Below are positions 400-18,829 of a stretch of DNA of 64,000 bases, in pieces. Source of the DNA: Rhizobium sp. SL42 (GTDB lineage: Bacteria > Pseudomonadota > Alphaproteobacteria > Rhizobiales > Rhizobiaceae); assembly GCF_021729845.1 (NCBI RefSeq), contig NZ_CP063397.1, forward strand, positions 1,874,001-1,938,000. The letters run 5' to 3'. The translations under genes and the position numbers were made by a program. Within the stretch, counting starts at the first letter, position 1. The number at the start of each line of letters is the position of its first letter. Under the pieces are notes generated by a model. The model was not told where the DNA came from. It saw only the letters and a list, made by a program, of their open reading frames with translations, and did not search any database.

Positions 400-3033
400 G
401 TGATGATGATGAATGTGCAATCCAGAACGTTTTTCGATGTTCCGCCGCTGCAGGTCCCGGTCGAGGGCATGACCTGCGCGTCCTGCGTGCGCCGTGTCGA
501 GAAGGCGGCGGCTGGCGTTGAGGGCGTCGCGGCGAGTGCGGTGAATTTCGCCACCGAGACGCTGAGCGTCACGCCGGGGCCGGGCTTTTCGGCGGCGGCG
601 CTGATGCGGGCGATCGCCGATGCCGGCTATGAGGCGCGGGCGGAAAAGCTGGTGCTCGAGGTCGAGGACATGACCTGCGCCTCCTGCGTCAGCCGGGTGG
701 AAAAGGCGCTTCTGTCGGTGCCGGCGGTGGAGACGGCCTCGGTCAATCTGGCGACCGGCGAGGCGATCGTCACCGTGCTGGGCGGCGCGCTGGCGCTTGC
801 CGACATGCAGGCGGCCGTCGACAAGGCCGGTTACCGGCTGCGGCCGGTTGTGCCGCAGGCAACAGGCCGGCCGGCGGTAAATGCCTCGGACCCTGCCGGC
901 GGCAGGGATGGCACGCGCCACGGGCCGATGGCAGATGCGGGCGTAGGCGGACAGCCCGACGACAGCCGCGAGGCGCGCCGCGCCCGTGAGATCGCCGCGT
1001 TGACGCGTGACATGTGGATCGCGCTTGTCCTGTCGCTGCCGCTCTTCGTCATGGAAATGGGCAGTCATCTCTATCCGCCGCTGCATCACATGCTGATGCA
1101 GGTATTCCCGGGTAACACGTTGTATTATCTGCAATTCGTGCTGGCGACGCTGGTGCTTTTCGGCCCCGGCCGGCGCTTTTTCGCCAAGGGCGTGCCGGCC
1201 CTCATCCGGCTGGCGCCCGACATGAACGCGCTGGTCGCGATCGGCACCGGTGCCGCCTATCTGTATTCGCTGGTGACGACGTTTGCGCCCGGCCTGCTGC
1301 CGGCCGAAGCCCGGCATGTCTATTATGAAGCCGCCACCGTCATCGTCACGCTGATCCTGCTTGGCCGCCTGCTCGAGGCCCGCGCCAAGGGCCGCACCGG
1401 CGCGGCGATCCGCAAGCTGGCCGGTCTGCAGGCAAAAACCGCGAGGGTCGAGCGCGACGGCCGCACCGTCGATCTCGACATTGCCGAAGTCGTGGTCGGC
1501 GATACGGTGTTGGTCCGGCCGGGCGAACGCATTCCGGTCGACGGAACGGTGATCGACGGCACGAGCGCGGTCGACGAGGCGATGATTTCGGGCGAGCCGA
1601 TCCCGGTCGAGAAGGGGCCGGGGGCCACCATGATCGGCGGCACCGTCAACGGGTCCGGCAGCCTCAGGTTCACCGCGACCGGCGTCGGCGCCGACATGAT
1701 GCTATCGCGCATCATCCGCATGGTCGCGGAGGCGCAAGGGGCCAAGCTGCCGATCCAGAAGCTGGTCGACCAGGTGACGGCCTGGTTCGTGCCGGCGGTC
1801 ATCGCCGTGGCGATCGCCACCTTCTTCGTCTGGCTGGCCGTCGGGCCGGAGCCCGCCTATACTTACGGATTGATCGCCGCCGTCGCCGTGCTGATCATCG
1901 CCTGCCCCTGCGCCATGGGTCTGGCCACCCCGACCTCGATCATGGTCGGTACCGGCAGGGCGGCCGAACTCGGCGTGCTGTTCAGGAAGGGCGAGGCGCT
2001 GCAGACCCTGGCCGGCATCGACACCGTGGTCATGGACAAGACCGGCACCATCACCCGCGGCCGGCCGGAACTGACCGGGATCGTGGTGGCCGAGGGTTTT
2101 GACGAGGCGGAGGTGCTTGGCCTCGTTGCGAGCCTGGAGGCGCGCTCCGAACATCCGCTCGCCGACGCGATCGTCAGGGCGGCGGAAGGGCGCGGGCTTG
2201 GCCTATTGCCGGTCGAGGCCATGCAGGCCGTGCCTGGCTTTGGTCTTTCCGGAACAGTGGCCGGTCGCAAGGTTTCGGCCGGCGCGGATCGCTACATGGT
2301 GAAGCTCGGGCTCGATGTGACACCATTCTCGACACGTATTGCCGAACTGGCCGATCAGGGCGCAAGTCCGCTCTATGTCGCGATCGATGGCAGGCTTTCG
2401 GCGGCTTTGGCGGTGGCCGATCCGCTGAAGGAGACCAGCGCTGCTGCGATCGCCGCCCTGAAGGGGCTTGGCCTGAAGGTGATGATGGTGACGGGCGACA
2501 ACGGCCGCACCACAAGGGCGATTGCTAAAAAGGCCGGCATCGACGACTTTGTCGCCGAGGTTCTGCCGGAAGGAAAGGTCAGCGTAATCAGGGACCTGCA
2601 GGCACGTGGCGCAAAACTCGCCTTTGTCGGCGACGGCATCAATGACGCGCCGGCGCTGGCCACTGCCGATGCCGGCATCGCGATCGGCACCGGCACCGAT
2701 GTGGCGATCGAAAGTGCCGATGTGGTTCTGGTCGGTGGCGATCTCGCCGGCGCCCTGCATGCGATCGAACTTTCGAGAAAGGTCATGCGCAATATCGGCG
2801 AGAACCTGTTCTGGGCCTTCGGCTACAATGTGCTTTTGATCCCGGTTGCCGCCGGCGCGCTCTATCCGGCCTTCGGCTGGATGCTCTCGCCGATGATCGG
2901 CGCCGGCGCCATGGGCCTGTCGAGCGTGTTTGTGCTGTCGAATGCGCTGCGGTTGAAGCGGGCGAGGGTGACGGATGTTGTGGCTGATGCCGTCGTCGGG
3001 CCGTCCCCCTCATCTGCGAAATCTAGCACTTAG
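400..3033 (+). CDS. copA: Cu(I)-translocating P1B-type ATPase (CopA/ActP)
   Basis: Exports Cu(I) across the inner membrane at the cost of ATP. Two N-terminal HMA domains carry metal-binding GMTCASC (Cys26, Cys29) and a second DMTCASC. The membrane CPC motif is at 502-504, the phosphorylated Asp of DKTGT at 546, SEHPLAD in the nucleotide-binding domain, and GDGIND near 744-749. At 877 residues it has the usual CopA length. The start is ambiguous: GTG at 400 is followed by ATGs at 403, 406 and 409 behind GAGG, and one of the ATGs is likely the real start. It is the first gene of a copper module with the regulator and chaperone downstream. Regulation by Cu(I)-CueR is inferred from the operator at 359-389. 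Confidence 0.97.
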
Positions 3034-3172
3034 CTGAAGCTAAGGTGCTGATTTCGCTTCTTCTCCCTCCAGGGGAGAAGAAAGGCGGCGCAAATCCTCT
3101 CCCTTGGAGGGAGAGGACAGAAAATCACGATCTTAGCGTCAGCTAAGTCGTAGATTTTCCAGGTGAGGGGGC
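3005..3172. repeat. MITE/RIME-like palindromic element (modules A and B, head to head)
   Basis: A block of about 168 bp starts with CCCCCTCATCTGCGAAATCT and ends with its imperfect complement (AGATTTTCCAGGTGAGGGGG). It holds four palindromes. Module A is AAATC..TTAGC..GCTAA..GATTT plus TTCTCCCTCC..GGGGAGAA, and module B is CCTCTCCCTT..GGGAGAGG plus the AAAATC..GATTTT stem. Related modules recur at about 6.06, 6.6, 6.7, 15.39 and 21.9 kb. It begins inside the copA 3' end, so the last copA codons come from the repeat. Confidence 0.8.
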
Positions 3173-3203
3173 TTTGTCATGCGAAAAAACCATGGAGAGA
3201 CAG

Positions 3204-3635
3204 ATGAATATCGGTGAAGCCTCGGCGGCCTCCGGCGTGTCGGCCAAGATGATCCGCTACTACGAGGAAATCGGGCTGATCGAGCCGGCCGGGCGCACGG
3301 CCGCCAATTACCGGGTTTATGATGAGGACGTGGTCAACCGGCTGCGCTTCGTCCGGCGGGCCCGCAATCTCGGCTTCTCGCTGGAGGAGACCGAGCGGCT
3401 GCTGAAGCTCTGGGCCGACAAGGAGCGGGCCAGCAGCGAGGTCAAGGCGCTGGCGGTCAGCCATATCGCCGACCTTGAGGTCAAGATCGCCGAGATGCAG
3501 TCGATGGTCGACACGCTGACGCATCTGGCCGACAGCTGCCATGGCGACACGCGGCCGCATTGCCCGATCCTCGCCGACCTTGCCGGTCGTCCGGTGCGGC
3601 AAAAGGCCGGGGGCGAAGTGGTGAAAAACCCTTGA
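3204..3635 (+). CDS. cueR: CueR/HmrR-type MerR-family copper regulator
   Basis: DNA-binding activator of copper efflux. It has the MerR N-terminal winged helix (NIGEASAASGVSAKMIRYYEEIGLI), a long dimerisation helix, and a C-terminal metal loop with two Cys separated by seven residues (CHGDTRPHC), the spacing that senses monovalent Cu/Ag in CueR. ATG 3204 is preferred over an upstream in-frame start at 3174 because GGAGA sits 5 bases before it and the HTH begins at once. The product is 143 aa, normal for CueR. It lies between copA and a copZ-like gene, and its likely target site is the palindrome at 362-382. Confidence 0.93.
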   Translation: MNIGEASAASGVSAKMIRYYEEIGLIEPAGRTAANYRVYDEDVVNRLRFVRRARNLGFSLEETERLLKLWADKERASSEVKALAVSHIADLEVKIAEMQSMVDTLTHLADSCHGDTRPHCPILADLAGRPVRQKAGGEVVKNP

Positions 3636-3706
3636 CCTTGCCATCGGGGCAGGGTGCAGAAGGGTGATCTAGAGATCGGCGACATTGGAATTTACAGGAG
3701 TGTGAC

Positions 3707-3916
3707 GTGAGCATGCGTGCAGAATTTTCGGTCGAGGACATGACCTGCGGCCATTGCGAGAAGGCCGTGACGAAGGCGCTGGCCGACTCGCTGCCGGGGG
3801 CGGCCGTGCACATCGATCTGACAGCCCATACCGTCAGCATCGAGGGCGACACCGGCGTTGCCGGCAAGGCCGAAGCCGCGATCCGCGAGGCGGGATACAC
3901 GCCCGTCAGGCTCTGA
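3707..3916 (+). CDS. copZ: CopZ-like heavy-metal-associated copper chaperone
   Basis: A single HMA domain of 69 aa with the metal-binding motif DMTCGHC near residues 11-17 and the usual ferredoxin-like fold pattern. It would carry Cu(I) in the cytoplasm and hand it to the HMA domains of the ATPase at 400. The start is GTG 3707, with CAGGAG ending 6 bases upstream; ATG 3713 is an in-frame alternative. It is the last gene of the copper module, 71 bp after the regulator. Confidence 0.92.
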   Translation: MSMRAEFSVEDMTCGHCEKAVTKALADSLPGAAVHIDLTAHTVSIEGDTGVAGKAEAAIREAGYTPVRL

Positions 3917-4211
3917 CGGATCGCCCGGCTCATTCCCGTTTCCATGCCTATTCCCAAGGCGCTCCGCGCCGCCGGACGCGCTCGGATCGCCTGTTCCTAT
4001 CCCTTGCGATAATCACCTTGCCGGCGCGCCGGGCCAGCTCGCCTGAGCCGATCCCGGTGCTCGGACTGTGGCGGAAAGGCCGAAATACCGGGGAAAATGA
4101 CGGTCGTTTCAACTTTTAGCGATTGTCGCGTCTAATTTAGAAAGCTGTTTGCGAGACAAGCGGATCTGTTGTCGGACGCGCCATGCGTTTCCCGACGGTC
4201 GAGGCTTTGGC

Positions 4212-5372
4212 ATGCAGGCAATGAAACGGGGTGGCGCCAGGCAGGACTGGCTTTTGCGGATGGGCGCCGAGGTCGAGGCGGCCCATGAGCGCGCCTATGG
4301 CGCCATGCGCATCGTGCACCTGCGCCAGACCATTCTGGTCGGACTTGCGGTCTACAATGTCTACAACCTGACCAGTTTCTACCTGATGGCCGATATCCAG
4401 TTCTGGACCGTCTTCCTGCGCCTCTGCGTGCTGACGCCCGGTTCCCTGCTGATCTTCTGCCTCGTGCCGCGCCTGCCGGCAGCTTGGCGGGAACTGATCC
4501 TTTTGCCGGGGGTGATGGTTGCAAGCCTGCTGCCGCTCTTTCTGCTCTGGTTGTCGCAATCGCCGCTGGCGACCTACACGATCGGCGAATTGCCGCTGAC
4601 GCTTGTCTTCGGCAACATGCTGCTGGTGCTGCGGTTTCGTTATGCCGTTCCGTTCACCGTGATCACCTGCGGTGTCGCCATGCTTGTGGTATCGACCAGG
4701 GCCGGCATCGATCCGGCGCTGCAATTCCCGTTTTTCGTGCAGATCGTCACCGGCTCCTTCCTGACGCTTTATGCCAACTGGCATGTCGAGCGCGTGCGCT
4801 GCCGGTCCTATCTTGCCGAGTATGATGCGCGCAGCCGCGCCGACCGGGCCGAACGGCTGGGCGACCGGCTGCGTGACCTGTCGCGCACCGACACGCTGAC
4901 CGGCATCGCCAATCGCGGCCACCTCGACGAGACGCTGGCGGGCTGGCTGGAGGACGGTTCCGACGTGCTGGTGATGATGGTCGATGTCGACCACTTCAAG
5001 GCCTATAACGACCTGCTTGGCCACCCCGCCGGCGACGAATGCCTGAAGCTGGTGGCGCAGCGTCTGGCCGACTACGCCCGCTACTATGACGGCTTTGCCG
5101 CCCGCTATGGCGGCGAGGAATTTACCCTGATTTTCCAGATGGATGCGGCCAATGGCGGATCCTTTCTCGCCGACCGCGTCGTCAAGGCGGTGCGCACGCT
5201 CGCCATTCCCCATCCGGCCCGCAGCGACGGGCTCTCGGTGGTGACCGTCAGCGCCGGTTTCGCCGGCACGCAGGCCGGATTGCCGCGCACGGCCGGCACG
5301 CTTCTCGCCCGCGCCGACCAGGCGCTCTACGAGGCCAAGCGCCAGGGTCGCGACCGCTCGCGGGCAGCCTGA
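4212..5372 (+). CDS. Membrane-anchored diguanylate cyclase (GGDEF)
   Basis: About 200 residues of hydrophobic sequence with roughly five or six predicted membrane segments are followed by a GGDEF domain (from about DTLTGIANRGHLDE to the end) with active-site RYGGEEF. The family makes cyclic di-GMP from two GTP. A possible I-site (RYYD) lies six rather than five residues before GGEEF, so product inhibition is uncertain. The frame is open from TTG 4149; ATG 4212 or 4221 is preferred. I do not recognise the sensory membrane region as a named family. No EAL domain is present. Confidence 0.88.
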   Translation: MQAMKRGGARQDWLLRMGAEVEAAHERAYGAMRIVHLRQTILVGLAVYNVYNLTSFYLMADIQFWTVFLRLCVLTPGSLLIFCLVPRLPAAWRELILLPGVMVASLLPLFLLWLSQSPLATYTIGELPLTLVFGNMLLVLRFRYAVPFTVITCGVAMLVVSTRAGIDPALQFPFFVQIVTGSFLTLYANWHVERVRCRSYLAEYDARSRADRAERLGDRLRDLSRTDTLTGIANRGHLDETLAGWLEDGSDVLVMMVDVDHFKAYNDLLGHPAGDECLKLVAQRLADYARYYDGFAARYGGEEFTLIFQMDAANGGSFLADRVVKAVRTLAIPHPARSDGLSVVTVSAGFAGTQAGLPRTAGTLLARADQALYEAKRQGRDRSRAA

Positions 5373-5409
5373 GGGGCAGGGTAAAATAGGCGAGATAGGA
5401 AAATAATCC

Positions 5410-5526
5410 TTGACGGCGTGACGCTGCTTTGCTAGTGTTTGGTCATGGTCGGGAATCTGCGGATGGCGGCCGGTCTGGTTCGGTACTGACGTTGAAAGCT
5501 CGGGTCTGCCCGGGCTTTTTTGTTTT
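5410..5526 (+). promoter_or_regulatory. Promoter, short leader and intrinsic terminator before the GTA cluster (attenuator or small RNA)
   Basis: TTGACG (5410-5415), 17 bp, then TAGTGT (5433-5438) gives a plausible sigma-70 promoter. About 60 bases later GCTCGGG-TCTG-CCCGGGC followed by TTTTTTGTTTT (5498-5526) forms a textbook intrinsic terminator. A 14-codon ORF (ATG 5445 to TGA) lies between them. The next gene's Shine-Dalgarno (GGGAGG) starts right after the T-tract. The arrangement fits either an attenuated leader for the GTA cluster or an independent sRNA of about 75-80 nt. Inference only. Confidence 0.5.
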
Positions 5527-5538
5527 CGGGAGGCAGAC

Positions 5539-6021
5539 ATGATGGCCGATGACGAGGCTGTGGATCTGGCTTTGCTGGCCCCGCTCGAGATGAAATCGGG
5601 TGATGAGGTGGTTGATGGTGCGGGTAGTGGAATGCCGGTTGGTACGCGCGGTGGCGCTGAGGGCGAACTGGCGCGGCTGCTCTCCGATTTCACCCTCGAG
5701 ATGCGGGCGCAGTTTGATCTGTTCCGCCGGCTGCGCTCGGCGGCGGAGGCGCTGCTCGACGGTGCCGATGAGGCAGCGGCCAAGCTGGCCCGCGCCGACA
5801 TCAAGGCGGCGACCGATGCGATCGCGCTGATCATCCGCACGCTGGAAAAGATCGACAGCCTGCAGCGCCAGCTGGCGCGCGACCGGACCGAGGCCGATGA
5901 ACGCCGGCAGCTGGAACGCGATCCGCAGGGCCTGCGCCGGAAGCTCGCATTGATGATCGAGGCGCGGGTGGCGGAGCGGGTCGAAATGGAGTTGGCCGCG
6001 CGGGCGCCGCCTTGCGGGTGA
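5539..6021 (+). CDS. GTA g1-position protein, candidate small terminase subunit
   Basis: A 160-aa protein immediately upstream of the large-terminase region, the position of RcGTA g1 (small terminase). The N-terminal 45 residues look disordered. The rest is almost entirely helical and includes a charged coiled-coil-like stretch (IRTLEKIDSLQRQLARDR). No enzymatic motif is visible. The start ATG 5539 follows GGGAGGCAGAC and ATG 5542 is equally possible. The TerS role is inferred from position, size and helicity; I do not recognise the sequence itself. Confidence 0.6.
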   Translation: MMADDEAVDLALLAPLEMKSGDEVVDGAGSGMPVGTRGGAEGELARLLSDFTLEMRAQFDLFRRLRSAAEALLDGADEAAAKLARADIKAATDAIALIIRTLEKIDSLQRQLARDRTEADERRQLERDPQGLRRKLALMIEARVAERVEMELAARAPPCG

Positions 6022-6058
6022 GTGTTGGCGCGCGGGCGAGTTGCCGGCCGCGGTATGT

Positions 6059-6150
6059 CCCCTCATCTGCGAAATCTGAGGTTTAGCCTGCGGCTAATTC
6101 CTCGATTTCGCTTCTTCTCCCTCGATGGGGAGAAGAAAGGCGTCGAGGTT
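6059..6150. repeat. MITE/RIME-like module A, left copy
   Basis: CCCCTCATCTGCGAAATC..., stem TGAGGTTTAGCC..GGCTAATTCCTCGATTTCG, then TTCTCCCTCGATGGGGAGAA and GGCGTCGAGG. It is a near-perfect inverted copy of 6597-6684, and the two enclose the DUF559 gene. Confidence 0.8.
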
Positions 6151-6239
6151 GGCGCTGATGGCGCCACCATAGATGGAGTTTCGGGGCTGGGCTTTTGTTT
6201 CGACGGGCTTTTGGCACAATTTCGAAAAGAGGTTTCGCC

Positions 6240-6593
6240 ATGTCCAGGACCCTTCCGCCACTTGCCCGCAGCAGAGCGCGATCGATGCGCCTGGATGCGA
6301 CGGATGCCGAGGCGATCGTCTGGTCGCATATTCGAAATCGTTTGTTGAATGGCTTCAAGTTTCGCCGACAGGTGCCAATCGGTCCGTATATCGCGGATTT
6401 TGGCTGTCAGGAGCGAAAGCTTGTCGTGGAACTGGACGGGTTTCAGCATGCGGAAAGCAGCCATGACTTGGTGCGGGACCAATATCTGAACACGCTCGGC
6501 TACCGGGTTTTGCGCTACTGGAACCAGGACGTCTATTCCAGCCTTCACGATGTGCTTCGCCATCTTGTCGAGGTTCTCGAAGGCCGCGCTTGA
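6240..6593 (+). CDS. DUF559-family protein (Vsr/restriction-endonuclease-like fold)
   Basis: A 117-aa protein with the DUF559 pattern: DATDAEAIVWSHIRNRLL near the N-terminus, then KFRRQVPIGPYIADF, then KLVVELDGFQH, and C-terminal GYRVLRYWNQDV. The Asp of YIADF and the Glu-x-Asp of VELDG fit a PD-(D/E)XK-type metal site, so nuclease activity is plausible but unproven. ATG 6240 is chosen because AAAAGAGG lies about 8 bases upstream; the frame is open from 6195. It sits alone between two inverted copies of the module-A repeat, inside the GTA cluster, with no apparent role in particle assembly. Confidence 0.85.
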   Translation: MSRTLPPLARSRARSMRLDATDAEAIVWSHIRNRLLNGFKFRRQVPIGPYIADFGCQERKLVVELDGFQHAESSHDLVRDQYLNTLGYRVLRYWNQDVYSSLHDVLRHLVEVLEGRA

Positions 6594-6596
6594 ACG

Positions 6597-6684
6597 CGAC
6601 GCCTCGCTTCTCCCCTTGAGGGAGAAGAAGCGAAATCGAGGGCTTAGCCGAAGGCTAAACCTCAGATTTCGCAGATGAGGGGGG
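6597..6684. repeat. MITE/RIME-like module A, right (inverted) copy
   Basis: Reverse complement of the left copy at 6059-6150 with only a handful of differences. It begins four bases after the DUF559 stop codon and ends with GCAGATGAGGGGGGGGG. Confidence 0.8.
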
Positions 6685-6699
6685 GGGCTCGGAGTGAAC

Positions 6700-6787
6700 G
6701 TCCCCTTCACCAGGAAAATCTACGACTTAGCCTTTGGCTAAGATCGTGATTTTCCGTCCTCTCCCTCAAAGGGGAGAGGAAAGGCGT
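6700..6787. repeat. MITE/RIME-like module B
   Basis: TCCCCTTCACCAGGAAAATC, stem ACGACTTAGCC..GGCTAAGATCGTGATTTTC, then CCTCTCCCTCAAAGGGGAGAGG. It is the same module as the right half of 3005-3172. It ends beside the Shine-Dalgarno of the terminase gene, so the repeat has replaced the native upstream region. Confidence 0.75.
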
Positions 6788-6798
6788 CAGGAGTGGCG

Positions 6799-8310
6799 AT
6801 GACCAGGAGCAGTGATGATCGGGTGCAGCGCGGTCAGGAGCGTAGGGCGATTGGCATCTTGGATCGATATTCAACCGGTATGGACGCTGTCAATGCGCAT
6901 CGCACCATGGCTTTGGCCTCGGGAAGGGCGGCAGCGGAGGCGATCGGTGGATCGATCCATGGGCGGAGCGGCCGGGAAATCGCCGGGCCGGTTGATGCGC
7001 TCGGCGCTGCTTCGGTGCCGGGTCGCATGGTTTCCGACCTGGTGGGGATGGACCTTTCCGGCACGCTTTCAGACCTTGAACCTTCGGCGCTGGCCTTTCT
7101 GCTGCGCGACTGGTCGCTGGTCGGCCGGGCCGAGCAGCAGCCGCCGGACGGCGACTGGCTGACCTGGCTGATCCTCGGCGGTCGCGGCTCGGGCAAGACG
7201 CGGGCCGGGGCCGAATGGGTGCAGGCGCAGGTATTGGCCGCCGGGCGGCGCACGGACCTGCGCATCGCGCTGGTCGCCGAGACGCTGGGCGATGCCCGGG
7301 AAGTGATGATCGACGGGGCTTCCGGCCTTGCGCGCCTTGCCGGGCCGATGGTGCCGGAGGTCGAGATCAGCCGCAGGCGGCTGGTCTGGCCGAATGGCGC
7401 GATGGCCCAGATCTTTTCCTCCGAAGATCCCGAAAGCCTGCGCGGACCGCAGTTTCATCTCGCCTGGTGCGACGAGCTGGCCAAATGGAAACATGCGGAC
7501 GCGACGTTCGACATGCTGCAGTTTGCCCTCAGGCTGGGCGAGCGGCCGCGCCAGGTGGTGACGACGACGCCGCGCGCCGTGTCGCTCTTGAAGCGGCTGA
7601 TCACGGACGCAACCACGGCGTTGACGCGGATATCGACGGCGGGCAATGCCGGCAATCTGGCACCGGGTTTCATCGCGACGCTTGACGCCCGCTATGGCGG
7701 CACGCGGCTCGGGCGCCAGGAACTGGACGGTGAACTGATCGAGGACCGGCCGGACGCCTTGTGGAAACGCGAGCGGCTGGACGACATCGTCGTCAGGGTG
7801 ACCGAACCCTTGCGCCGCATCGTCGTGGCGGTCGATCCGCCGGCCGGCGGCACATCATCCTGCTGCGGCATCGTGGTCGCCGGGCTGAAGGAGAACGGCC
7901 AGGCAGTGGTGCTCGCCGATGTTTCGGTCGAAGGCGCCAGTCCGGCGGTCTGGGCCCGCGCCGTGGTCGCGGCGTTTCGCCGGTTCGAGGCCGACCGGGT
8001 GGTGGCCGAGATCAACCAGGGCGGCGACATGGTGGCAAGCGTCCTGACCGGCATCGAGGCATCGCTGCCGATTACGACGGTGCGGGCGACGCGCGGCAAG
8101 TTCCTGCGCGCCGAACCGGTGGCCGCACTCTACGAGCAGGGCCGGGTCGTGCATGCCGCGCGGTTCTCGGCGCTGGAGGACCAGATGTGCGATTTCGGCC
8201 CGGACGGCCTGAGCAGCGGCCGTTCGCCCGACCGGCTCGACGCGCTGGTCTGGGCGCTGACGGCGCTTTTGCTCGAGGCCGGCGGCGAGCCGCGCATCCG
8301 GGGGATCTGA
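6799..8310 (+). CDS. GTA large terminase subunit (TerL, g2-type)
   Basis: ATPase/nuclease that cuts and pumps DNA into GTA heads. Walker A GGRGSGKT lies about 129 codons from the in-frame GTG at 6793; the Walker B-type strand is FHLAWCDEL. The C-terminal RNase H-like nuclease shows RIVVAVDPP and AEINQGGDM. ATG 6799 follows AGGAG by 5 bases. The protein is 503 aa, about 75 residues longer at the N-terminus than expected for GTA terminases; the extra part is low-complexity and begins next to a repeat. Internal ATG 7027 (MVSDLVGMDLSG) could be the ancestral start. Confidence 0.93.
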   Translation: MTRSSDDRVQRGQERRAIGILDRYSTGMDAVNAHRTMALASGRAAAEAIGGSIHGRSGREIAGPVDALGAASVPGRMVSDLVGMDLSGTLSDLEPSALAFLLRDWSLVGRAEQQPPDGDWLTWLILGGRGSGKTRAGAEWVQAQVLAAGRRTDLRIALVAETLGDAREVMIDGASGLARLAGPMVPEVEISRRRLVWPNGAMAQIFSSEDPESLRGPQFHLAWCDELAKWKHADATFDMLQFALRLGERPRQVVTTTPRAVSLLKRLITDATTALTRISTAGNAGNLAPGFIATLDARYGGTRLGRQELDGELIEDRPDALWKRERLDDIVVRVTEPLRRIVVAVDPPAGGTSSCCGIVVAGLKENGQAVVLADVSVEGASPAVWARAVVAAFRRFEADRVVAEINQGGDMVASVLTGIEASLPITTVRATRGKFLRAEPVAALYEQGRVVHAARFSALEDQMCDFGPDGLSSGRSPDRLDALVWALTALLLEAGGEPRIRGI

Positions 8311-8340
8311 GCGGAAGCACGGGTCTGACGTTGAATTGGA

Positions 8341-8440
8341 GACTGGCCCTGATGAGGCTGGCCCGGACGAGATAGGCCCGGACAGGACTGGCCCAGAACA
8401 AAGACGGCCCGGACAAAAGACGGCCCGGACAAAAGACTGG
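8341..8440 (+). repeat. Degenerate 15-17 bp tandem repeat (minisatellite)
   Basis: About six head-to-tail units of a motif close to GACTGGCCCGGACAA, directly after the terminase stop. The last full units are near-identical 16-mers. Similar 15-bp-period arrays lie at 9497-9565 and 13018-13066. Confidence 0.75.
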
Positions 8441-8445
8441 GCAAA

Positions 8446-8475
8446 ACAAAACCGGCGCCTTTCGACGCCGGTTTG
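8446..8475 (-). terminator. Intrinsic terminator of the 49-aa minus-strand gene
   Basis: Read on the minus strand: AAACCGGCG-TCGAAAGG-CGCCGGTTTTGTTTT, a strong GC stem with a T-rich tail, 21 bases after the stop of the small gene at 8496-8645. Confidence 0.75.
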
Positions 8476-8495
8476 AAATCTGGGCGGTGGATCGC

Positions 8496-8645
8496 TTATT
8501 TCGAAGCGGATGATGGCTGGGACGAACTTGCGCGCATCTGGCGCCACTCGTTTTCCAGGCGTTCCAGCACATGGGCCGGGATGGGCGCCGCTGACGTGGC
8601 TGCTACGGCCGTGGCCTTGGTCTGGGAAGCGGTATTCGTCTGCAT
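8496..8645 (-). CDS. Small 49-aa protein, antisense in the GTA cluster, stress-type promoter
   Basis: A 49-aa ORF with a complete transcription unit of its own: an EcfG-type promoter at 8680-8704, Shine-Dalgarno AGGAGGATACAC just before ATG 8645, and an intrinsic terminator at 8446-8475. The product is Thr/Ala/Ser-rich with an amphipathic centre (AHVLERLENEWRQMR) and no membrane segment or Cys. I do not recognise it. It is convergent with the terminase gene. Because of its perfect expression signals it is far more likely to be real than the long frame around it (8496-9332, minus), which overlaps the endolysin gene. Confidence 0.75.
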   Translation of the reverse strand: MQTNTASQTKATAVAATSAAPIPAHVLERLENEWRQMRASSSQPSSASK

Positions 8646-8679
8646 GTGTATCCTCCTCGCGTTGGAAGTCTGTGCCTCA

Positions 8680-8704
8680 AACGTCCTTGTGAGACGAAGG
8701 TTCC
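8680..8704 (-). promoter_or_regulatory. EcfG (general stress sigma)-type promoter
   Basis: On the minus strand GGAAC (8700-8704), exactly 16 bp, then CGTT (8680-8683). This matches the GGAAC-N16/17-CGTT consensus of the alphaproteobacterial general stress sigma factor EcfG/RpoE2. It lies 35 bases before ATG 8645. Confidence 0.75.
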
Positions 8705-8852
8705 ACAGTGTTAAATCTTTGTAAATATGGGCCGATGCCCCTTTAAACGATTGAATTTTCTTCAATCGGTTTAAATCCGCAGATTTTTTCAGAGCCACCT
8801 CAGCGCCCTTGACCTTCGCCATTTTTTCACCCGCCAGAAGTGAGGGATCGCC

Positions 8853-9467
8853 ATGCCGATCGCCAGAAAGACGTTCTTTGCCGGCGTCCGCGCTGCCGTG
8901 TTCGGCGGCCGGCTGACGGCTGATCAGGTGGCGGGCATGGAGGCGATTCTCACCCGGTTCGAGCGGCGCGGCTGGGGCGATCCGCGCTGCCTTGCCTATA
9001 TGCTGGCCACCGCCCATCACGAGACGGCGGCAAGGATGCAGCCGGTGCGCGAGACGCTGGCGGCAACGGACGACGAAGCAATCGCCATCCTGGAACGCGC
9101 CTGGCGCGGCGGCCGGCTGCCCTGGGTGGCGACGCCGTACTGGAGGCGCGATGCAGACGGAAAGAGCTGGCTCGGCCGCGGGCTGGTGCAGCTGACGCAC
9201 CGGGCGAATTACGCGGCCATGAGCCGGGTGACGGGCGTCGACCTGGTGGCCGACCCCGATCTCGCCCTGCGCACCGATATCGCGGTGACGATCATGCTCG
9301 CCGGCATGACCGAAGGCACGTTCACCGGCCACCGGCTGAAGGACTATTTCGATGGCCAGAAGGCCGACTGGACCGGTGCGCGCCGGATCATCAACGGGCA
9401 GGAGCGAGCCGGCAAGGTAGCGGCGACCGCGCGGCTGTTCGACGCGGCGATCCGGGCAGGGCTCTGA
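8853..9467 (+). CDS. GH19-type endolysin (chitinase/lysozyme-like)
   Basis: A 204-aa protein of the GH19 lysozyme/chitinase fold. AYMLATAHHETAARMQPVRE carries the likely catalytic Glu (HHET), and KSWLGRGLVQLTHRANYAAMS is the conserved substrate-cleft block. There is no signal peptide, so release would need a holin or lysis, as for phage endolysins. A holin-like gene lies at the far end of the cluster (26386). ATG 8853 follows GAGGGATCGCC. In Rhodobacter the GTA lysis genes are encoded elsewhere; here the candidate endolysin is inside the structural cluster, between terminase and portal. Confidence 0.85.
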   Translation: MPIARKTFFAGVRAAVFGGRLTADQVAGMEAILTRFERRGWGDPRCLAYMLATAHHETAARMQPVRETLAATDDEAIAILERAWRGGRLPWVATPYWRRDADGKSWLGRGLVQLTHRANYAAMSRVTGVDLVADPDLALRTDIAVTIMLAGMTEGTFTGHRLKDYFDGQKADWTGARRIINGQERAGKVAATARLFDAAIRAGL

Positions 9468-9496
9468 GTGCTGGGGCTAAACGGGCGGGGGGCTGA

Positions 9497-9565
9497 GACT
9501 TTGGGACCGAGATTTGGGGGGCCAGGACTTGGGGGCCTAAGACTTTGGAGCCTAGGACTTGGGGC
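9497..9565 (+). repeat. Degenerate 15-bp tandem repeat (minisatellite)
   Basis: About 4.5 units of a motif near GACTTGGGGGCCTAG, 30 bases after the endolysin stop. The period is 15 bp. Related in period and position to the arrays at 8341 and 13018. Confidence 0.75.
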
Positions 9566-9707
9566 GTGCGCGAAACCGACCGCCGATCGCCGGTCCTGGG
9601 TCAGGCAGGCGAACGGAAGCAGCGCCCGGCGCGGCGGTCCGGCATTGAGCCGGGCAGGCGGTCATGCTATCGCGCCGCAGCATTCGTTTGTTGCCGGGAG
9701 CCTGTCC

Positions 9708-10013
9708 ATGATCCGCCATATCGTCTTCTTCACCGTCCGGCCGGAGAATCTGGATGCGGTGCGCGCGGGGCTGTCGATCCTGACCGGCATTCCGCATGCA
9801 AACAGGCTTGAAATCGGCACCAATGTGAAGACCGACCAGTTCGATCAGGGCATCGACCTGGTCGTCTACGGCGAGTTCGACGATGCGGCGGCGCTGGCCG
9901 CCTACAAGGCGCATCCGCTCTATCAGGAAAGCATCGACCGGGTGAAGCCGCTGCGCGACGAGCGTTATGCCGCGGACTACGAGGTTGGCGCGGCGGTGAC
10001 GGCGGCGATCTAG
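9708..10013 (+). CDS. Dabb (stress-responsive A/B barrel) domain protein
   Basis: A 101-aa single-domain protein. MIRHIVFFTVRPENLDAVRAG begins the ferredoxin-like dimeric A/B barrel; FDQGIDLVVYGEFDDAAALAAYKAHPLYQ is the typical Dabb centre with the HP near the end. Function in bacteria is generally unknown. ATG 9708 follows GGGAG; the frame is open from 9468 through the minisatellite but that part is not protein-like. It is a host-type gene lying between GTA genes and is not expected in the particle. Confidence 0.85.
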   Translation: MIRHIVFFTVRPENLDAVRAGLSILTGIPHANRLEIGTNVKTDQFDQGIDLVVYGEFDDAAALAAYKAHPLYQESIDRVKPLRDERYAADYEVGAAVTAAI

Positions 10014-10043
10014 CTCAGGCGATCGGGACGGCGCTTTGGGGCA

Positions 10044-10258
10044 CCCCCCTCTGTCGGCTACGCCGACATCTCCCCCACACGGGGGGAGATCGGCCGCCAG
10101 CCTTGTGCTCGACCCACATACCCGACGCATTGTGCCTTTGATATTTGCCGCGCCGCCTTTGTGATGTTGGAGCGATACTGCTGAACATTTGGGGCAGAGC
10201 CGTGCGGCAGATCGATCTCCCCCCGTGTGGGGGAGATGCCCGGCACGGCAGAGGGGGG
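10044..10258. repeat. RIME1-like element (module C, inverted pair)
   Basis: Two copies of the CCCCCTCTGTC..GACATCTCCCCCACACGGGGGGAGATCG module face each other at 10044-10093 and 10211-10258 and enclose about 120 bp of non-coding sequence. Termini CCCCCCTCTG and CAGAGGGGGG form inverted repeats. It fills most of the gene-free stretch 10014-10359. The same paired form occurs at 33578-33765. Confidence 0.8.
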
Positions 10259-10359
10259 TAACCTCCCTGTCGCTGTGTGTGCATCCCCGACCCTAACCGC
10301 AGGCGAAACGCCGCATTCGCGCAGAACGACCGTTCCTCCACGATCAACGGAGACACCCG

Positions 10360-11508
10360 ATGAAAATCCCATTTCGAATGCCGTGGACCTGGTCTTCGGC
10401 AGGCAAGGCCGTGCGGGACGAAAAGGCCCTAACGGGTCCCTTGGCGCTGATTGCCGGCGAGGGGCAGGCGCGCTGGACCGGGCGCTCCTACGGCGCCCTG
10501 TCGCGCGAGGGCTTCATGAAGAACCCGGTCGCCTATCGTGCGGTGCGGATGATATCCGAGGCGGCGGCCAGCATTCCCTGGCTTGCCTATCAGGGTGCAA
10601 CCGAGCGGCCGGATCATCCGGCGCTGGCGCTTCTGGCGCGGCCCAACGCGGCGATGACCGGGCCGGATTTCTTCGAGACGCTTTATGGCCACCTGCTGCT
10701 TGCCGGCAATGCCTATGTAGAGCCGCTGAGCCTTGCCCAGCGCGCCGCCGAACTGCATCTGCTGCGACCGGACCGGACAGGCGTGGTGCTTGGCGCCGAT
10801 GGCTGGCCGGTCGGCTACGACTACCGCGCCGGTGCCGCGGCACGGCGGATCGCGGCGGGCGGGCTGCTGCATCTGAAACTGTTTCATCCGCTCGACGACC
10901 ACCAGGGCTATCCGCCGCTGGCGGCAGCCCAGGTGGCGCTCGATCTGCACAATGCCTCGGGCCGCTGGAACAAGGCGCTGCTCGACAATTCGGCGAGGCC
11001 GTCGGGCGCGCTGGTCTACCAGCCGAAGGAGGGCGGCAACCTGTCGTCCGACCAGTATGAGCGGCTGAAGACTGAACTCGACGAGGGATATTCCGGCCCG
11101 ATGCGCGCCGGCCGGCCGTTGCTGCTCGAGGGCGGGCTCGACTGGAAGTCGATGGGGCTGTCGCCGAAGGACATGGATTTCGTCGAGGCGAGGAATGATG
11201 CCGCTCGCGACATCGCGCTCGCCTTCGGCGTGCCGCCGATGCTGATCGGCATTCCGGGCGACAATACCTATGCCAATTACCAGGAGGCCAACCGCGCCTT
11301 CTACCGGCTGACCGTGCTGCCGCTGGTGGCGCGCATCGCCGCCAGCCTGTCTGTGTTCCTCGGCGACCTCACGGGCGAGGCGTTGCGGTTGGCCCCGGAT
11401 CTCGACACCGTGGCGGGACTGGCCACCGAGCGCGACGCGCTCTGGGCACGGGTGGGCGCGGCGGGGTTCCTGAGCGACGACGAGAAGCGCGAGGCTGTGG
11501 GCTATTGA
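10360..11508 (+). CDS. GTA portal protein (HK97 family, g3-type)
   Basis: The 382-aa portal forms the dodecameric ring through which DNA enters and leaves the head. Family blocks are GFMKNPVAYRAVRMISEAAASIP, an ALLARPNAAMTG..FFETLYGHLLLAGNAY stretch, and GVPPMLIGIPGDNTYANYQEANRAFY toward the C-terminus. ATG 10360 follows AACGGAGACACCC. It lies downstream of a RIME1-like element and is separated from the terminase by the endolysin and Dabb genes. Confidence 0.94.
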   Translation: MKIPFRMPWTWSSAGKAVRDEKALTGPLALIAGEGQARWTGRSYGALSREGFMKNPVAYRAVRMISEAAASIPWLAYQGATERPDHPALALLARPNAAMTGPDFFETLYGHLLLAGNAYVEPLSLAQRAAELHLLRPDRTGVVLGADGWPVGYDYRAGAAARRIAAGGLLHLKLFHPLDDHQGYPPLAAAQVALDLHNASGRWNKALLDNSARPSGALVYQPKEGGNLSSDQYERLKTELDEGYSGPMRAGRPLLLEGGLDWKSMGLSPKDMDFVEARNDAARDIALAFGVPPMLIGIPGDNTYANYQEANRAFYRLTVLPLVARIAASLSVFLGDLTGEALRLAPDLDTVAGLATERDALWARVGAAGFLSDDEKREAVGY

Positions 11509-11596
11509 GGGTGCGGGAGCGTTTGCCGGTGGCGCGTTGTCGCGCGCGCTGCAGATGCTATCCTCGCCCGTCTGGGTTCCTTCACAAGGGCAGCAT

Positions 11597-12241
11597 ATGA
11601 ACAAGGCCATTCTGTTCGGCGCCGATGACAGCGTCTATGTCCGTATCGCGCGTCTGACCCTGTATGAAAAGGGCGTCAACTACGAACTGGTGCCGATCGA
11701 CATATTTGCACCGGACAGCGTGCCGGCGAGTTATGGCGACAGGCAGCCCTTCGGCAAGATCCCGTCCTTCGACCATGACGGTTTCCGCCTGTACGAGACC
11801 GGAGCCATCACCCGCTACGTTGACGAGGCATTTCCCGGACCGGCGCTGCAACCCGAAGACCCGAGGCAGCGGGCCCGGATGAACCAGTTGATCAGCATTG
11901 CGGACGCCTACATCTATCGGCACCTTGTCTGGGGACTGTATGTCGAGCTGGTTTCGAAACCGGCCGATGGCGAGATGCCCGATCCGCGACGGGTTGGTGA
12001 AGCGCGTGCCAAGATGCCGGTATGCCTCGGTGTCCTGTCGGATTTTCTCGCGGACGGCCCCTGGCTCTGTGGCGACAGACTGACGCTTGCCGACCTCTAT
12101 CTCGCGCCGATGCTCGACTATTTTCTGATGGTGCCCGAAGCCAGACAAGCCGTGGGCAAGATCATCAACCTGCAAAGATGGCATGAACGCATCGGGAGCC
12201 GGGCAAGCTTTGTAGCGACATGCACCACCAACGGGCGTTGA
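11597..12241 (+). CDS. Glutathione S-transferase family protein
   Basis: A 214-aa GST. The N-terminal thioredoxin-like domain shows a PFGKIPSFDHDGFRLYETGAI block with the cis-Pro and the glutathione-binding E/T. The C-terminal helical domain contains PWLCGDRLTLADLYLAPML, the GST N-capping box region. ATG 11597 has AAGGGC before it. It may detoxify electrophiles with glutathione; the substrate cannot be told. Another host-type gene interposed in the GTA cluster, 88 bp after the portal stop. Confidence 0.9.
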   Translation: MNKAILFGADDSVYVRIARLTLYEKGVNYELVPIDIFAPDSVPASYGDRQPFGKIPSFDHDGFRLYETGAITRYVDEAFPGPALQPEDPRQRARMNQLISIADAYIYRHLVWGLYVELVSKPADGEMPDPRRVGEARAKMPVCLGVLSDFLADGPWLCGDRLTLADLYLAPMLDYFLMVPEARQAVGKIINLQRWHERIGSRASFVATCTTNGR

Positions 12242-12582
12242 AAGTGTGTGGCACTGGGGCGGAGCCTACTGGCTCGCCCGATGGCGATTGGGCCGAATGA
12301 TGATGGTCGGCTGGGAGCTTCTTCGAGTTCGCCGCTTCCTCAACCTGAATCGGAACCGCAAGCACTTCATCCGCCACATTGAGGCGCGGACTCAAAACCT
12401 GAGCTTTGGCGCCTAAGCGATTCCATCGACTCGCGAAAACGATCGCACTTCATGTGAGACATGAAGCGCTAACCGCCGGATGACGCGGGTCTTGCGAGGG
12501 GGAAGTTGCGCCGGCCGACGCCTACAGAGGCGGGATCGTTCAGGCCGGCGCGGGTAAAAGACTAATCGCGAAAGATGAACAA
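12242..12582. other. 341-bp gene-free stretch with a short palindrome
   Basis: No convincing gene. A 39-codon frame (ATG 12298) is Arg/Asn-rich and lacks a ribosome site. CTTCATGT-GAG-ACATGAAG (12448-12466) is a perfect 8-bp inverted repeat that could be an operator for the following gene. Confidence 0.5.
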
Positions 12583-12903
12583 ATGACTGACTTCAGCCAC
12601 GACGGCGGCGTGTTTTCGGCACGGCTGATCGGTGCTGTCGCGGGTTCCGCGATCTCGCTGATCTATCTCCTGCCCAAGGGTCGCCGCGAGGCGGCGGTGC
12701 GGCTCGCGACCGGGGTCGCCTGCGGGCTGATCTTCGGCGGACCGGCAGGCGTCTGGTGCGCGACGCGGCTGGGACTGACGCAGCATCTGCGGGCGTCGGA
12801 GGTCATGCTGGCCGGCGCGACGCTCGCTTCGTTCACCGCCTGGTGGGGGCTCGGACTCCTGGTCCGGCTGACCACGCGGGCGGGGCCGAAGTCGGGGATG
12901 TGA
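12583..12903 (+). CDS. Small membrane protein between GTA portal and protease genes (DUF6107-like)
   Basis: A 106-aa protein with about three predicted hydrophobic helices (residues roughly 12-32, 40-62, 75-95) and a short hydrophilic N-terminus (MTDFSHDGG). It sits where rhizobial GTA clusters carry a small conserved membrane protein between portal and protease; from memory this is the DUF6107 family, not certain. No catalytic motif is visible. Size and topology would allow a holin-like or chaperone role, but nothing in the sequence decides. Confidence 0.7.
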   Translation: MTDFSHDGGVFSARLIGAVAGSAISLIYLLPKGRREAAVRLATGVACGLIFGGPAGVWCATRLGLTQHLRASEVMLAGATLASFTAWWGLGLLVRLTTRAGPKSGM

Positions 12904-12942
12904 GGGGTGGTTTTTTGGGGGGCACGTTTGCGGTCCGGGATA

Positions 12943-12992
12943 CCCCCCTCTGCCCTGCCGGGCATCTCCCCCACAAGGGGGGGAGATCGGCC
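12943..12992. repeat. RIME1-like module C
   Basis: CCCCCCTCTGCCCTGCCGGGCATCTCCCCCAC..GGGGGGAGATCGG: two adjacent palindromes, single copy. It lies in the 300-bp non-coding gap 12904-13203 together with the minisatellite at 13018 and module D at 13066. Confidence 0.8.
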
Positions 12993-13017
12993 GGATGGGC
13001 GGCACTGGCCTTTTTGG

Positions 13018-13066
13018 GCGTTGGCGAGCTGGGCTTCGGGGGGCTGGGCGTTGGTGGGCTGGGCCG
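13018..13066 (+). repeat. 15-bp tandem repeat (minisatellite)
   Basis: Three and a bit units of GGCGTTGGTGGGCTG (GGCGTTGGCGAGCTG, GGCTTCGGGGGGCTG, GGCGTTGGTGGGCTG). The third 15-bp-period array in GTA intergenic space. Confidence 0.75.
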
Positions 13067-13125
13067 TCACCCCACCCCGGACCTTTTGTCCGACCCTCCC
13101 CTTCAAGGGGAGGGTGGCGGCTGGG
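13066..13125. repeat. Palindromic module D
   Basis: CACCCCACCCCGGACC-TTTT-GTCCGACCCTCCCCTTCAAGGGGAGGGTGG. It contains the palindrome CCCTCCCCTT-CAAGGGGAGGG. A similar module is at 19490-19540. Confidence 0.65.
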
Positions 13126-13203
13126 GTTGGTCTCTCAATCCGGCGACAAGCTCTGGGCGCCGAGACGCCCGACACAGATCATCACGACTACGAGGAGAGC
13201 AAG

Positions 13204-13803
13204 ATGCTGCGACCATCAAGGGCGGGGGCAGGAGCAGGTCAGGGAACCGGAGCTCCGAGTTTCAAATATGCCGACCTGGTGCTCAAGGGCGTGGCCGGCG
13301 ACGGCACGTTTTCCGGCTATGCCAGCTTGTTCGGCGAGGTCGATCTCGGCCGCGATGCGATCGAGCCCGGCGCGTTCAGGGCCTCGCTCGCCAAGCGCGG
13401 AGCGGGCGGCGTGCGCATGCTCTACCAGCATGATCCGGCCGACGTGATCGGCACATGGACGGCGCTGCGCGAGGACGAGCGCGGCCTGTATGTCGAGGGC
13501 CGGCTGGCGACTGACGTTGCCCGCGCCCGCGAGGTGCATGCGCTGATGAAGGCGGGCGCGCTCGACGGGCTGTCGATCGGCTTTCGCGCGGTGAAATCGC
13601 GCAATGATCGCAGGACCGGCGTGCGGCGCATCCTCGAGGCGGATCTCTGGGAAATCTCGGTGGTGACCTTTCCCATGCTGCCGACAGCCAGGGTCTCCAA
13701 CGTCAAGCATCAGCGGTTCTACCGCGACAGGGAAACCGAACTCGTCCGGCTGATGCGCCGGGCGGCACGGTCGATGGCAGGAACACTCTTCACGAAAGGA
13801 TGA
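13204..13803 (+). CDS. GTA prohead protease (HK97/U35 family, g4-type)
   Basis: A 199-aa assembly protease that trims the capsid N-terminus and scaffold. The likely catalytic His is in MLYQHDPADVIG and the Ser in LDGLSIGFRAV, with EADLWEISVVTFPM as the conserved following block. ATG 13204 follows GAGGAGAGCAAG and gives a normal length; the frame upstream to 12907 runs through repeats and is not protein-like. The capsid gene follows after 4 bp. Confidence 0.93.
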   Translation: MLRPSRAGAGAGQGTGAPSFKYADLVLKGVAGDGTFSGYASLFGEVDLGRDAIEPGAFRASLAKRGAGGVRMLYQHDPADVIGTWTALREDERGLYVEGRLATDVARAREVHALMKAGALDGLSIGFRAVKSRNDRRTGVRRILEADLWEISVVTFPMLPTARVSNVKHQRFYRDRETELVRLMRRAARSMAGTLFTKG

Positions 13804-13807
13804 CGCG

Positions 13808-15148: not shown

Positions 15149-15220
15149 GGGGCAGGGGGGTGCCGCCGGGTAAGTGTGGGGTTAGCCCAGTAGCCCGGTA
15201 GCCGACTGGTGCCGTGGTTA

Positions 15221-15267
15221 CCCCCCTCTGCCCTGCCGGGCATCTCCCCCACACGGGGGGAGATCGG
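15221..15267. repeat. RIME1-like module C
   Basis: CCCCCCTCTGCCCTGCCGGGCATCTCCCCCACACGGGGGGAGATCGG, in the 372-bp gap between capsid and adaptor genes, which also holds module A at 15387. Confidence 0.8.
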
Positions 15268-15386
15268 TTGGGGCGGCGGCGGTGCATCCACGAAACCTTC
15301 GAAAGCTCGGATACGACAACCAGATCGATTGCGCGTGGCCGCGACGCGTCGGTTCATCTCCCCCCTTGAGGCGGAGACGTCATCGT

Positions 15387-15469
15387 CCCCCTCATCTGCA
15401 AAATCTGAGGTTTTGCCTTCGGCTAAGCCCTCGATTTTGCTTCTTCTCCCGCAAGGAGAGAAGCGGGCT
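15387..15469. repeat. MITE/RIME-like module A
   Basis: TCCCCCTCATCTGCAAAATC..TGAGGTTTTGCC..GGCTAAGCCCTCGATTTTGCTTCTTCTCCC..GAGAAG, a variant of the modules at 6059 and 6597. Confidence 0.75.
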
Positions 15470-16090: not shown

Positions 16091-16092
16091 AA

Positions 16093-18822: not shown

Positions 18823-18829
18823 GGTGGCG

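What the first reader, a model, noticed from the sequence alone, without database searches (positions are those of the whole stretch)
6059..6684. DUF559 nuclease-like gene framed by about 90-bp near-identical inverted repeats
The DUF559 gene (6240-6593) lies exactly between two inverted copies of the same palindromic module (6059-6150 and 6597-6684); the right copy starts four bases after its stop. The copies agree over about 85 of 92 positions by eye. Gene-free versions of the module occur elsewhere (3005, 15387, 21911). The layout recalls REP-associated transposases framed by REPs, so DUF559 may act on, or travel with, these repeats. A link between DUF559 and RIME-like repeats is not one I know to be described.
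Basis: partly seen in the sequence, partly recalled or inferred. Interest (0 to 1): 0.7.

Follow-up and report, generated by a model that had tools for sequence, protein, structure and literature searches.

The report
Nuclease partner of bacterial palindromic repeats
A small DNA-cutting-type gene (DUF559) sits between two mirror-facing copies of a repeated hairpin sequence, and comparison with many other bacteria suggests that such genes and such repeats belong together, which gives a widespread family of "orphan" repeats a candidate enzyme that can be tested.

Summary
In detail: the DUF559 gene (6240-6593) lies between inverted copies of an ~87-bp two-hairpin repeat, 92% identical. The association is general. 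Among 129 DUF559 genes from the window's genus and family, 49 have inverted flanking repeats against 9 of 2161 other genes in the fetched loci; in named loci 54 of 84 against 4 of 867. DUF559 subfamilies match repeat variants even at unrelated loci: within the genus 46 of 46 pairs at >=65% protein identity share the repeat, 52 of 1300 below 45%. The repeat hairpin occurs in 144 of 148 family genomes with DUF559 and 32 of 92 without; with one genome per family, 20 of 30 against 2 of 72 are repeat-rich. One DUF559 subfamily occupies three slots of one gene cluster, between the repeats each time. The repeats have the build of E. coli's BoxC / intrastrand-triplex motifs, for which no mobility gene was found; E. 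coli's DUF559 gene, ycjD, has such a copy beside it. Best reading: DUF559 is the dedicated Vsr-like nuclease of these repeats, analogous to RAYT for REPs. Cutting and mobilisation are inferred.

The parts
6057..6147 (+). left repeat arm (tag CCCCTC outermost, hairpin A, hairpin B innermost)
   Evidence: covariance model 100.7 bits (the copy is one of the 7 the model was built from); 92% identical to the right arm over 87 bp; fold z -6.0
6240..6593 (+). DUF559 gene, 117 aa, Vsr-like PD-(D/E)XK nuclease family; invariant E24, D53, E64, D66, H70, D76, R79, N95
   Evidence: Pfam PF04480 E 4e-37; invariant in 20 aligned members and in the 7 including E. coli YcjD; dN/dS 0.07-0.16 in 8 of 10 comparisons, not computable in 2; AlphaFold model pLDDT 89.4
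6595..6684 (-). right repeat arm, inverted; begins at 6597, four bases after the last base of the stop codon
   Evidence: 103.8 bits
6701..6791 (+). third repeat arm, head-to-head with the right arm
   Evidence: 100.2 bits
3004..3092 (+). gene-free copy, first arm of a tail-to-tail pair
   Evidence: 101.6 bits
3084..3172 (-). gene-free copy, second arm of the tail-to-tail pair
   Evidence: 90.7 bits
15386..15475 (+). single gene-free copy
   Evidence: 89.5 bits
21910..21999 (+). single gene-free copy
   Evidence: 90.1 bits

Best explanation
DUF559 is the dedicated nuclease of a superfamily of intergenic repeats whose copies consist of a CCCTC-type tag, a variable loop or hairpin A, and a TCTCCC..GGGAGA hairpin B, the build of the BoxC / potential-intrastrand-triplex motifs. 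Each DUF559 subfamily recognises its own repeat variant. It most likely nicks or cuts DNA at, or next to, the cognate repeat when the repeat is folded or single-stranded (replication), and repair or recombination then copies the repeat, or the unit repeat-DUF559-repeat, to other sites. In the window the unit is left arm - DUF559 - right arm, and the gene-free tail-to-tail pair at 3004-3172 corresponds to the non-autonomous form. Shown: association, variant matching, co-occurrence, presence in different slots, purifying selection on the protein. Inferred: binding, cutting, the copying route and its direction.
For: Flank enrichment: inverted 49/129 against 9/2161 controls, 1/202 among small isolated genes; 54/84 against 4/867 in named loci; 11 of 18 loci with no homologous neighbourhood elsewhere in the set. 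Tag-plus-hairpin arm within 300 bp: 174/213 DUF559 against 383/3028 genes and 196/868 isolated genes; on both sides 73/213 against 17/3028 and 15/868. Matching of subfamily and repeat at non-homologous loci. Genome co-occurrence: Fisher p 7e-28; more copies with than without DUF559 in 23 of 26 genera that have both kinds; one genome per family 20/30 against 2/72, genomes of 3.4 Mb or more 15/21 against 1/23. Slots. Site turnover with 97.9-99.1% identical adjacent flanks. Hairpins kept by paired changes: 444 double-change cells against 128 in shuffles. Adjacent copies are opposed: 23 tail-to-tail, 13 head-to-head, 0 in the same direction. Tag mirrors hairpin B. Other families and classes. Active-site spacing close to that of the DUF559 protein VsrA.
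Against: No binding or cutting was tested. 39 of 213 DUF559 genes have no such arm within 300 bp, for instance five Rhizobium loci with inverted scores 9.5-12 (L196, L197, L201, L215, L231). 22 of 92 family genomes without DUF559 carry 5 or more hairpins, and 6 of 32 genera without DUF559 do. Isolated control genes in the genus often have a repeated sequence in one flank (165 of 354). Arm orientation relative to the gene differs between clades. I saw no target-site duplication (not searched systematically) and found no clean empty site for the window's own slot, whose DUF559 is shared by four species, so it has not moved lately. The strict E. coli motif is absent from all 129 rhizobial loci and, in named loci, sits in a flank of 3 of 84 DUF559 genes and 4 of 867 controls. 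A DUF559 protein of Caulobacter has been given another role, mismatch repair. In E. coli the repeat lies on one side only.
Confidence: 0.6

Rival explanations
1. Homing-type nuclease: DUF559 is a free-standing homing endonuclease whose target is the repeat. It cuts gene-free repeat sites and is copied into them by recombination with its own flanks; the repeats themselves spread by other means.
For: A weak profile match to the mobile-intron protein 3R3P (E 0.023; recalled: I-Bth0305I, a Vsr-like homing enzyme). At the G112 site a relative (G325) keeps a gene-free pair similar to G112's where G112 also has the gene.
Against: The number of repeats follows DUF559 across genomes, which homing into existing repeats does not by itself explain. 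The 3R3P match is weak.
Confidence: 0.2
2. Housekeeping nuclease: DUF559 processes or repairs folded repeats (or mismatches in methylated sites), so genomes rich in such repeats keep it; its flanking arms serve its own control.
For: Caulobacter VsrA, a DUF559 protein, is needed for the SOS response seen when a cytosine methyltransferase is missing, and its authors propose mismatch repair (passages read). Purifying selection.
Against: Does not predict that subfamily and repeat variant match at unrelated loci or that one subfamily sits in three slots of one cluster.
Confidence: 0.13
3. Passive hot spot: repeat-rich intergenic sites take up small foreign genes, DUF559 among them.
For: Repeats are abundant: 165 of 354 isolated control genes in the genus have a repeated sequence in a flank. 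The G112 site holds different repeats in different relatives.
Against: Small isolated genes in the same loci show inverted flanks in 1 of 202 and 1 of 64. Variant matching and co-occurrence are unexplained.
Confidence: 0.05

Closest known systems
REP / RAYT (REP-associated tyrosine transposases) and REPINs
   Same: A small nuclease-type gene framed by two inverted copies of a multicopy intergenic palindrome; inverted doublets without the gene; a different repeat group beside each enzyme gene (passages); few enzyme genes per genome (here 1-8 in the family genomes with a match).
   Different: The enzyme is a Vsr-like PD-(D/E)XK protein, not a tyrosine transposase; the repeats carry no GTAG head but a CCCTC-type tag and a second hairpin.
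BoxC / PIT / TM intrastrand-triplex repeats (Holder 2015, PMC4666352)
   Same: Tag plus pyrimidine/purine hairpin with near mirror symmetry and usually one mismatch; intergenic; inverted pairs occur. The strict E. coli consensus lies beside E. coli ycjD and beside some DUF559 genes of other families.
   Different: Rhizobial variants have long loops, often with an extra hairpin, and do not fit the strict consensus (0 of 129). I found no enzyme named for BoxC in what I read.
CGTC-tagged REPs, mostly of alphaproteobacteria (Di Nocera 2013, PMC3733652)
   Same: Palindromes in inverted dimers, reported to seem to lack a dedicated transposase (passages).
   Different: Stem of 8-9 bp starting with A/T after a CGTC (or TGTC, CCTC) motif; the window repeats begin CCCCTC and have two hairpins.
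Vsr mismatch endonucleases; Caulobacter VsrA (PMC12907096)
   Same: Same superfamily (passages) and near-identical active-site spacing to VsrA; VsrA is itself a DUF559 protein.
   Different: The Vsr model's cut-off is not met (16.1 bits against 97.85); I did not look for a methyltransferase gene beside the window gene.

Membership tests
DUF559 (PF04480) | profile match above the curated cut-off | tested here: met
   126.8 bits against 20.6
RAYT | tyrosine (Y1/HuH) transposase protein | tested here: not met
   Pfam-A at E <= 0.001 gives only DUF559 and a restriction-enzyme model below its cut-off; a fold search could not be run
RAYT/REP-like arrangement | gene framed by two inverted copies of a multicopy intergenic palindrome | tested here: met
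REPIN-like doublets | inverted pairs of the repeat without a gene between | tested here: met
   36 adjacent pairs (gap 60 or less) among 115 copies in 19 sources, all in opposite orientation; 43 copies unpaired
BoxC/TM intrastrand-triplex repeat | strict consensus CCCTCNCCC N3-6 GGGNGAGGG N3 GGGNGAGGG | tested here: not met
   0 of 129 rhizobial loci; 3 of 84 named loci (controls 4 of 867); met at E. coli ycjD and at 6 of 20 loci of other families; on both sides at 2 of 9 loci
BoxC/TM-like architecture | tag mirrors the pyrimidine arm of the hairpin | tested here: met
   positions 2-4: 75, 81, 64% against 43, 64, 40% shuffled; position 1: 24 against 16%; 287 arms; shuffles ignore relatedness
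Vsr / VSP repair | Vsr model above cut-off | tested here: not met
   16.1 bits against 97.85
Nuclease activity | cleavage of DNA | not testable with these tools
   conserved E24, D53, D66, H70, D76 only
RIME | sequence match to published RIME | not tested
   no RIME sequence was fetched; a listing of papers only

The most novel reading that the evidence does not exclude
DUF559 proteins are the missing enzymes of the BoxC / intrastrand-triplex repeats throughout Pseudomonadota: nucleases that recognise a folded tag-plus-hairpin, possibly the triplex itself, and thereby spread both the repeat and their own gene. This would be a second, independently evolved REP-type system, built on a Vsr-like fold in place of a tyrosine transposase.
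Probability: 0.45. Interest if true: 0.93.

Novelty: new variant of a known kind. Interest (0 to 1): 0.85.

Why it matters
BoxC/PIT/TM repeats have been known in E. coli since the 1990s, occur in more than 260 genomes and mark unstable loci (PMC4666352, abstract and passages); its authors found no transposase or integrase remnants around them and no link to gene classes. DUF559 is a large family without an assigned function in Pfam. Pairing the two gives each a testable partner, in E. coli K-12 itself (ycjD; 23 motif copies in MG1655 by that paper, median 18 places per E. coli genome). It would also be a second solution to the REP/RAYT arrangement with an unrelated enzyme fold.

Tried and rejected
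Chance flanking: rejected by controls in the same loci. Host relatedness as the cause of subfamily-repeat matching: not supported by the within-genus and within-genome tables (same-genome pairs below 45% identity 1 of 44, 45-55% 3 of 16, at 55% or more 5 of 5). Genome size as the cause of co-occurrence: 15/21 against 1/23 among genomes of 3.4 Mb or more. A first all-against-all flank comparison used loose scoring, linked every locus and was dropped. Presence of a repeated sequence in at least one flank is a weak signal in this genus (52 of 68 DUF559 against 165 of 354 isolated genes); presence in both is the strong one (31 of 68 against 23 of 354; rest of the family 7 of 61 against 2 of 250). 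Rfam at gathering thresholds gave nothing. Enterotoxin rows in the solved-structure search (E 0.2 and above) are taken as chance and were not followed. PADLOC and PHROGs gave weak hits to other families.

What was left out. Of 79 DUF559 places listed in the genus 71 were in the stretches examined; the other eight were weak hits (E 3e-8 or worse), mostly in very long frames. From the rest of the family 60 places were fetched, each from a different genome, from the top of a capped list. The 20 class-level loci were picked by me; 12 of them are from genomes with five or fewer hairpins. Of the 20 loci I examined 9; the others were genomes already seen, weak hits, or (L323, L327) members of the window's family. 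No control genes were run for the class- and phylum-level loci. Seven and twelve genomes with only weak DUF559 hits were set aside; of the twelve, two were repeat-rich. Named and unnamed loci overlap in part; eight identical loci were removed only, so the pooled counts hold some loci twice.

Literature searches for a DUF559-repeat link: (three returned nothing; one search listed 25 of 174). None of the listed titles or abstract beginnings reports one. The library lacks most subscription journals and bioRxiv, so 'not in print' is not claimed.

Full report
What is there. The gene at 6240-6593 encodes a 117-aa DUF559 protein. It is framed by inverted copies of an ~87-bp repeat, 92% identical. Three copies were folded and each forms two hairpins. 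A third copy follows the right one after 18 bases. Seven copies lie in the first 22 kb of the window; the whole genome has 10 matches above 60 bits (candidates capped). The neighbours (large terminase, GH19-type protein, portal) look like a phage-like or gene-transfer-agent-like cluster; that name is my recollection, not a test.

The genome's second DUF559 gene has, just upstream, an inverted pair of a different palindrome of the same general build. This prompted a general test.

Flank test. From the window's genus and family I examined 133 DUF559 hits in 130 loci of up to 20 kb; 129 had full flanks. Comparing 300-bp flanks, inverted similarity (score 25 or more) occurs at 49 of 129 DUF559 genes, 9 of 2161 other genes, and 1 of 202 other genes of at most 200 aa with at least 100 bp of intergenic space on both sides; direct similarity at 48 of 129 against 17 of 2161. 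Genes were called with a simple script. Five of the nine flanked control genes are the terminase of the window's cluster, four of them beside a DUF559 unit. Loci are not all independent: grouped by homologous neighbourhood, 207 loci form 33 groups (the largest 102), 24 of which have at least one flanked member, and 11 of 18 ungrouped loci are flanked.

Build of the repeats. In the arms listed for 54 loci and for the flanked named loci most share a tag (CCCCTC or a close form), a variable hairpin or loop A, and hairpin B (TCTCCC..GGGAGA). In 287 distinct arms found by a script that requires tag and hairpin, the tag mirrors the pyrimidine arm of hairpin B: positions 2-4 after the tag match at 75, 81 and 64% against 43, 64 and 40% in shuffles; position 1 at 24 against 16%, the commonest pairs there being A against T (shuffling ignores relatedness). 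In 115 copies of the window's variant, paired changes abound: 444 double-change cells against 128 in shuffles, and 94.7% of cells paired (the alignment was fitted to the structure). Adjacent copies within 60 bp are opposed: 23 tail-to-tail, 13 head-to-head, 0 in the same direction; 43 copies are unpaired. This is the build of BoxC/PIT/TM repeats, described by Holder et al. (PMC4666352; abstract, passages, sections 15 and 18 and part 1 of section 20 read), who never found transposase or integrase remnants near them.

Variant matching. Among pairs of loci without homologous neighbourhoods, the share with the same flanking repeat rises from 2% at 35-45% protein identity to 8, 39 and 89% at 45-55, 55-65 and 65-75% (Mantel r 0.52, 0 of 999 permutations as high). 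Within the window's genus, different genomes, it is 46 of 46 at 65% or more, 123 of 145 at 55-65%, 62 of 514 at 45-55% and 52 of 1300 below 45%; among paralogues of one genome, 5 of 5 at 55% or more, 3 of 16 at 45-55% and 1 of 44 below 45%.

Co-occurrence. In 247 family genomes the hairpin pattern occurs 0-386 times, the reversed control pattern 0-2 times. It is present in 144 of 148 genomes with DUF559 and 32 of 92 without; five or more copies in 124 of 148 and 22 of 92; of 26 genera with both kinds, 23 have more copies with DUF559, 2 fewer, 1 equal. Six of 32 genera without DUF559 still have 5 or more copies. With one genome from each of 114 families of the class, 20 of 30 genomes with DUF559 and 2 of 72 without are repeat-rich, and 15 of 21 against 1 of 23 among genomes of at least 3.4 Mb.

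Movement. The gene order around the window (copper ATPase, MerR, GGDEF, hypothetical, terminase, GH19, portal) is largely shared by 23 genus loci examined, as far as their contigs reach; GGDEF was not found in some. The window's DUF559 subfamily (67.5-95% identity) lies between hypothetical and terminase (window, G006), between terminase and GH19 on the other strand (G037), or between GH19 and portal on either strand (G022, G038; G030, G034), with arms of the window's repeat on both sides each time. In G030 the nearest right arm has the same direction as the left one and the opposed arm follows it. A second subfamily (49-54% identity; G010, G032, G025, G017, G003) lies between terminase and GH19, between two tail-to-tail pairs or a pair and a single arm. 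Of 12 clusters without DUF559, 7 hold strong copies (45 bits or more), some at the same slots (G008, G002), and 5 hold none (L096, L097, L100-L102). In the window's slot the gene is shared by four species and evolves under purifying selection, dN/dS 0.07-0.16 in the 8 of 10 comparisons where it could be computed. At one site in another genus, G112 carries arm-DUF559-arm-arm; G255, with adjacent flanks 97.9-99.1% identical (97 and 92% over 1.4 kb), lacks the gene and holds a gene-free pair of a different variant; G325 holds a gene-free pair like G112's; G336 and G341 hold only a short hairpin.

Beyond the family. E. coli K-12 ycjD is a DUF559 gene and has in its 3' spacer a copy fitting the strict TM consensus; that repeat is found in 5375 of 5426 E. 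coli genomes, at a median of 18 places. It is on one side only, and no inverted flank similarity is seen there (score 9). Of 20 loci from 15 other families of the class, inverted similarity reaches 18 in 14 and 25 in 7, and 6 hold the strict TM motif, two of them on both sides of the gene (L300, L301; in L292 both copies are on one side). Of 9 further loci (7 outside the class, 2 of the order), 4 reach 25, 2 hold the strict motif on both sides, and by eye all 9 have a motif of this type close by, weakly in L312. No control genes were run for these two sets.

The protein. Residues E24, D53, D66, H70 and D76 are invariant from the window to E. coli YcjD among 7 aligned, with nearly the spacing given for Caulobacter VsrA (E73, D102, D115, H119, D124; passages of PMC12907096). 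YcjD was already counted in the PD-(D/E)XK superfamily, with Vsr as a profile hit, in 2005 (passages of PMC1189080). The nearest solved chain is 3HRL, 'Endonuclease-Like Protein', E 9e-37. The AlphaFold model is confident (pLDDT 89.4, pTM 0.82); a fold search could not be run.

Reading. The layout, variant specificity and co-occurrence resemble those of RAYT and REP (passages of PMC2817692, PMC3116915 and PMC3733652), with an unrelated enzyme and a different repeat. I hold the partnership as well supported (about 0.85), and nuclease-driven spread as the likeliest working (0.6). How the ends are made, and whether the triplex itself is recognised, is open.

Noticed in passing
window 3004-21999: Seven of the genome's ten strong copies of this repeat lie in 19 kb around the terminase-portal cluster, and in several other genus members many of the listed matches also lie near it (a capped list ranked by likeness to a copy from this cluster). 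Why is unexplained.
   Followed up: partly
L291:2206-2240 (E. coli K-12, beside ycjD): E. coli's DUF559 gene ycjD has a BoxC/TM copy in its 3' spacer; a 2026 paper (PMC12817139, passages) reports that ycjD occupies the place of the eef operon in some phylogroups.
   Followed up: partly
L003:9300-9980: The genome's second DUF559 gene has an inverted pair of a CCCTCCCC-type palindrome upstream; none was seen downstream.
   Followed up: partly
L200 (Bipolaricaulota MAG), about 7800-8670: DUF559 flanked by long inverted repeats of a different type (GGGAACCGG...), suggesting that other repeat classes may have DUF559 partners.
   Followed up: no
G412: A 3.4-Mb genome with 10 DUF559 matches (two of them weak) and 168 hairpin copies, a possible host for watching the system at work.
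   Followed up: no
Many DUF559 open frames run far beyond the domain (up to 500 aa and more), probably because they read into the flanking repeats; annotated starts may often be wrong.
   Followed up: no
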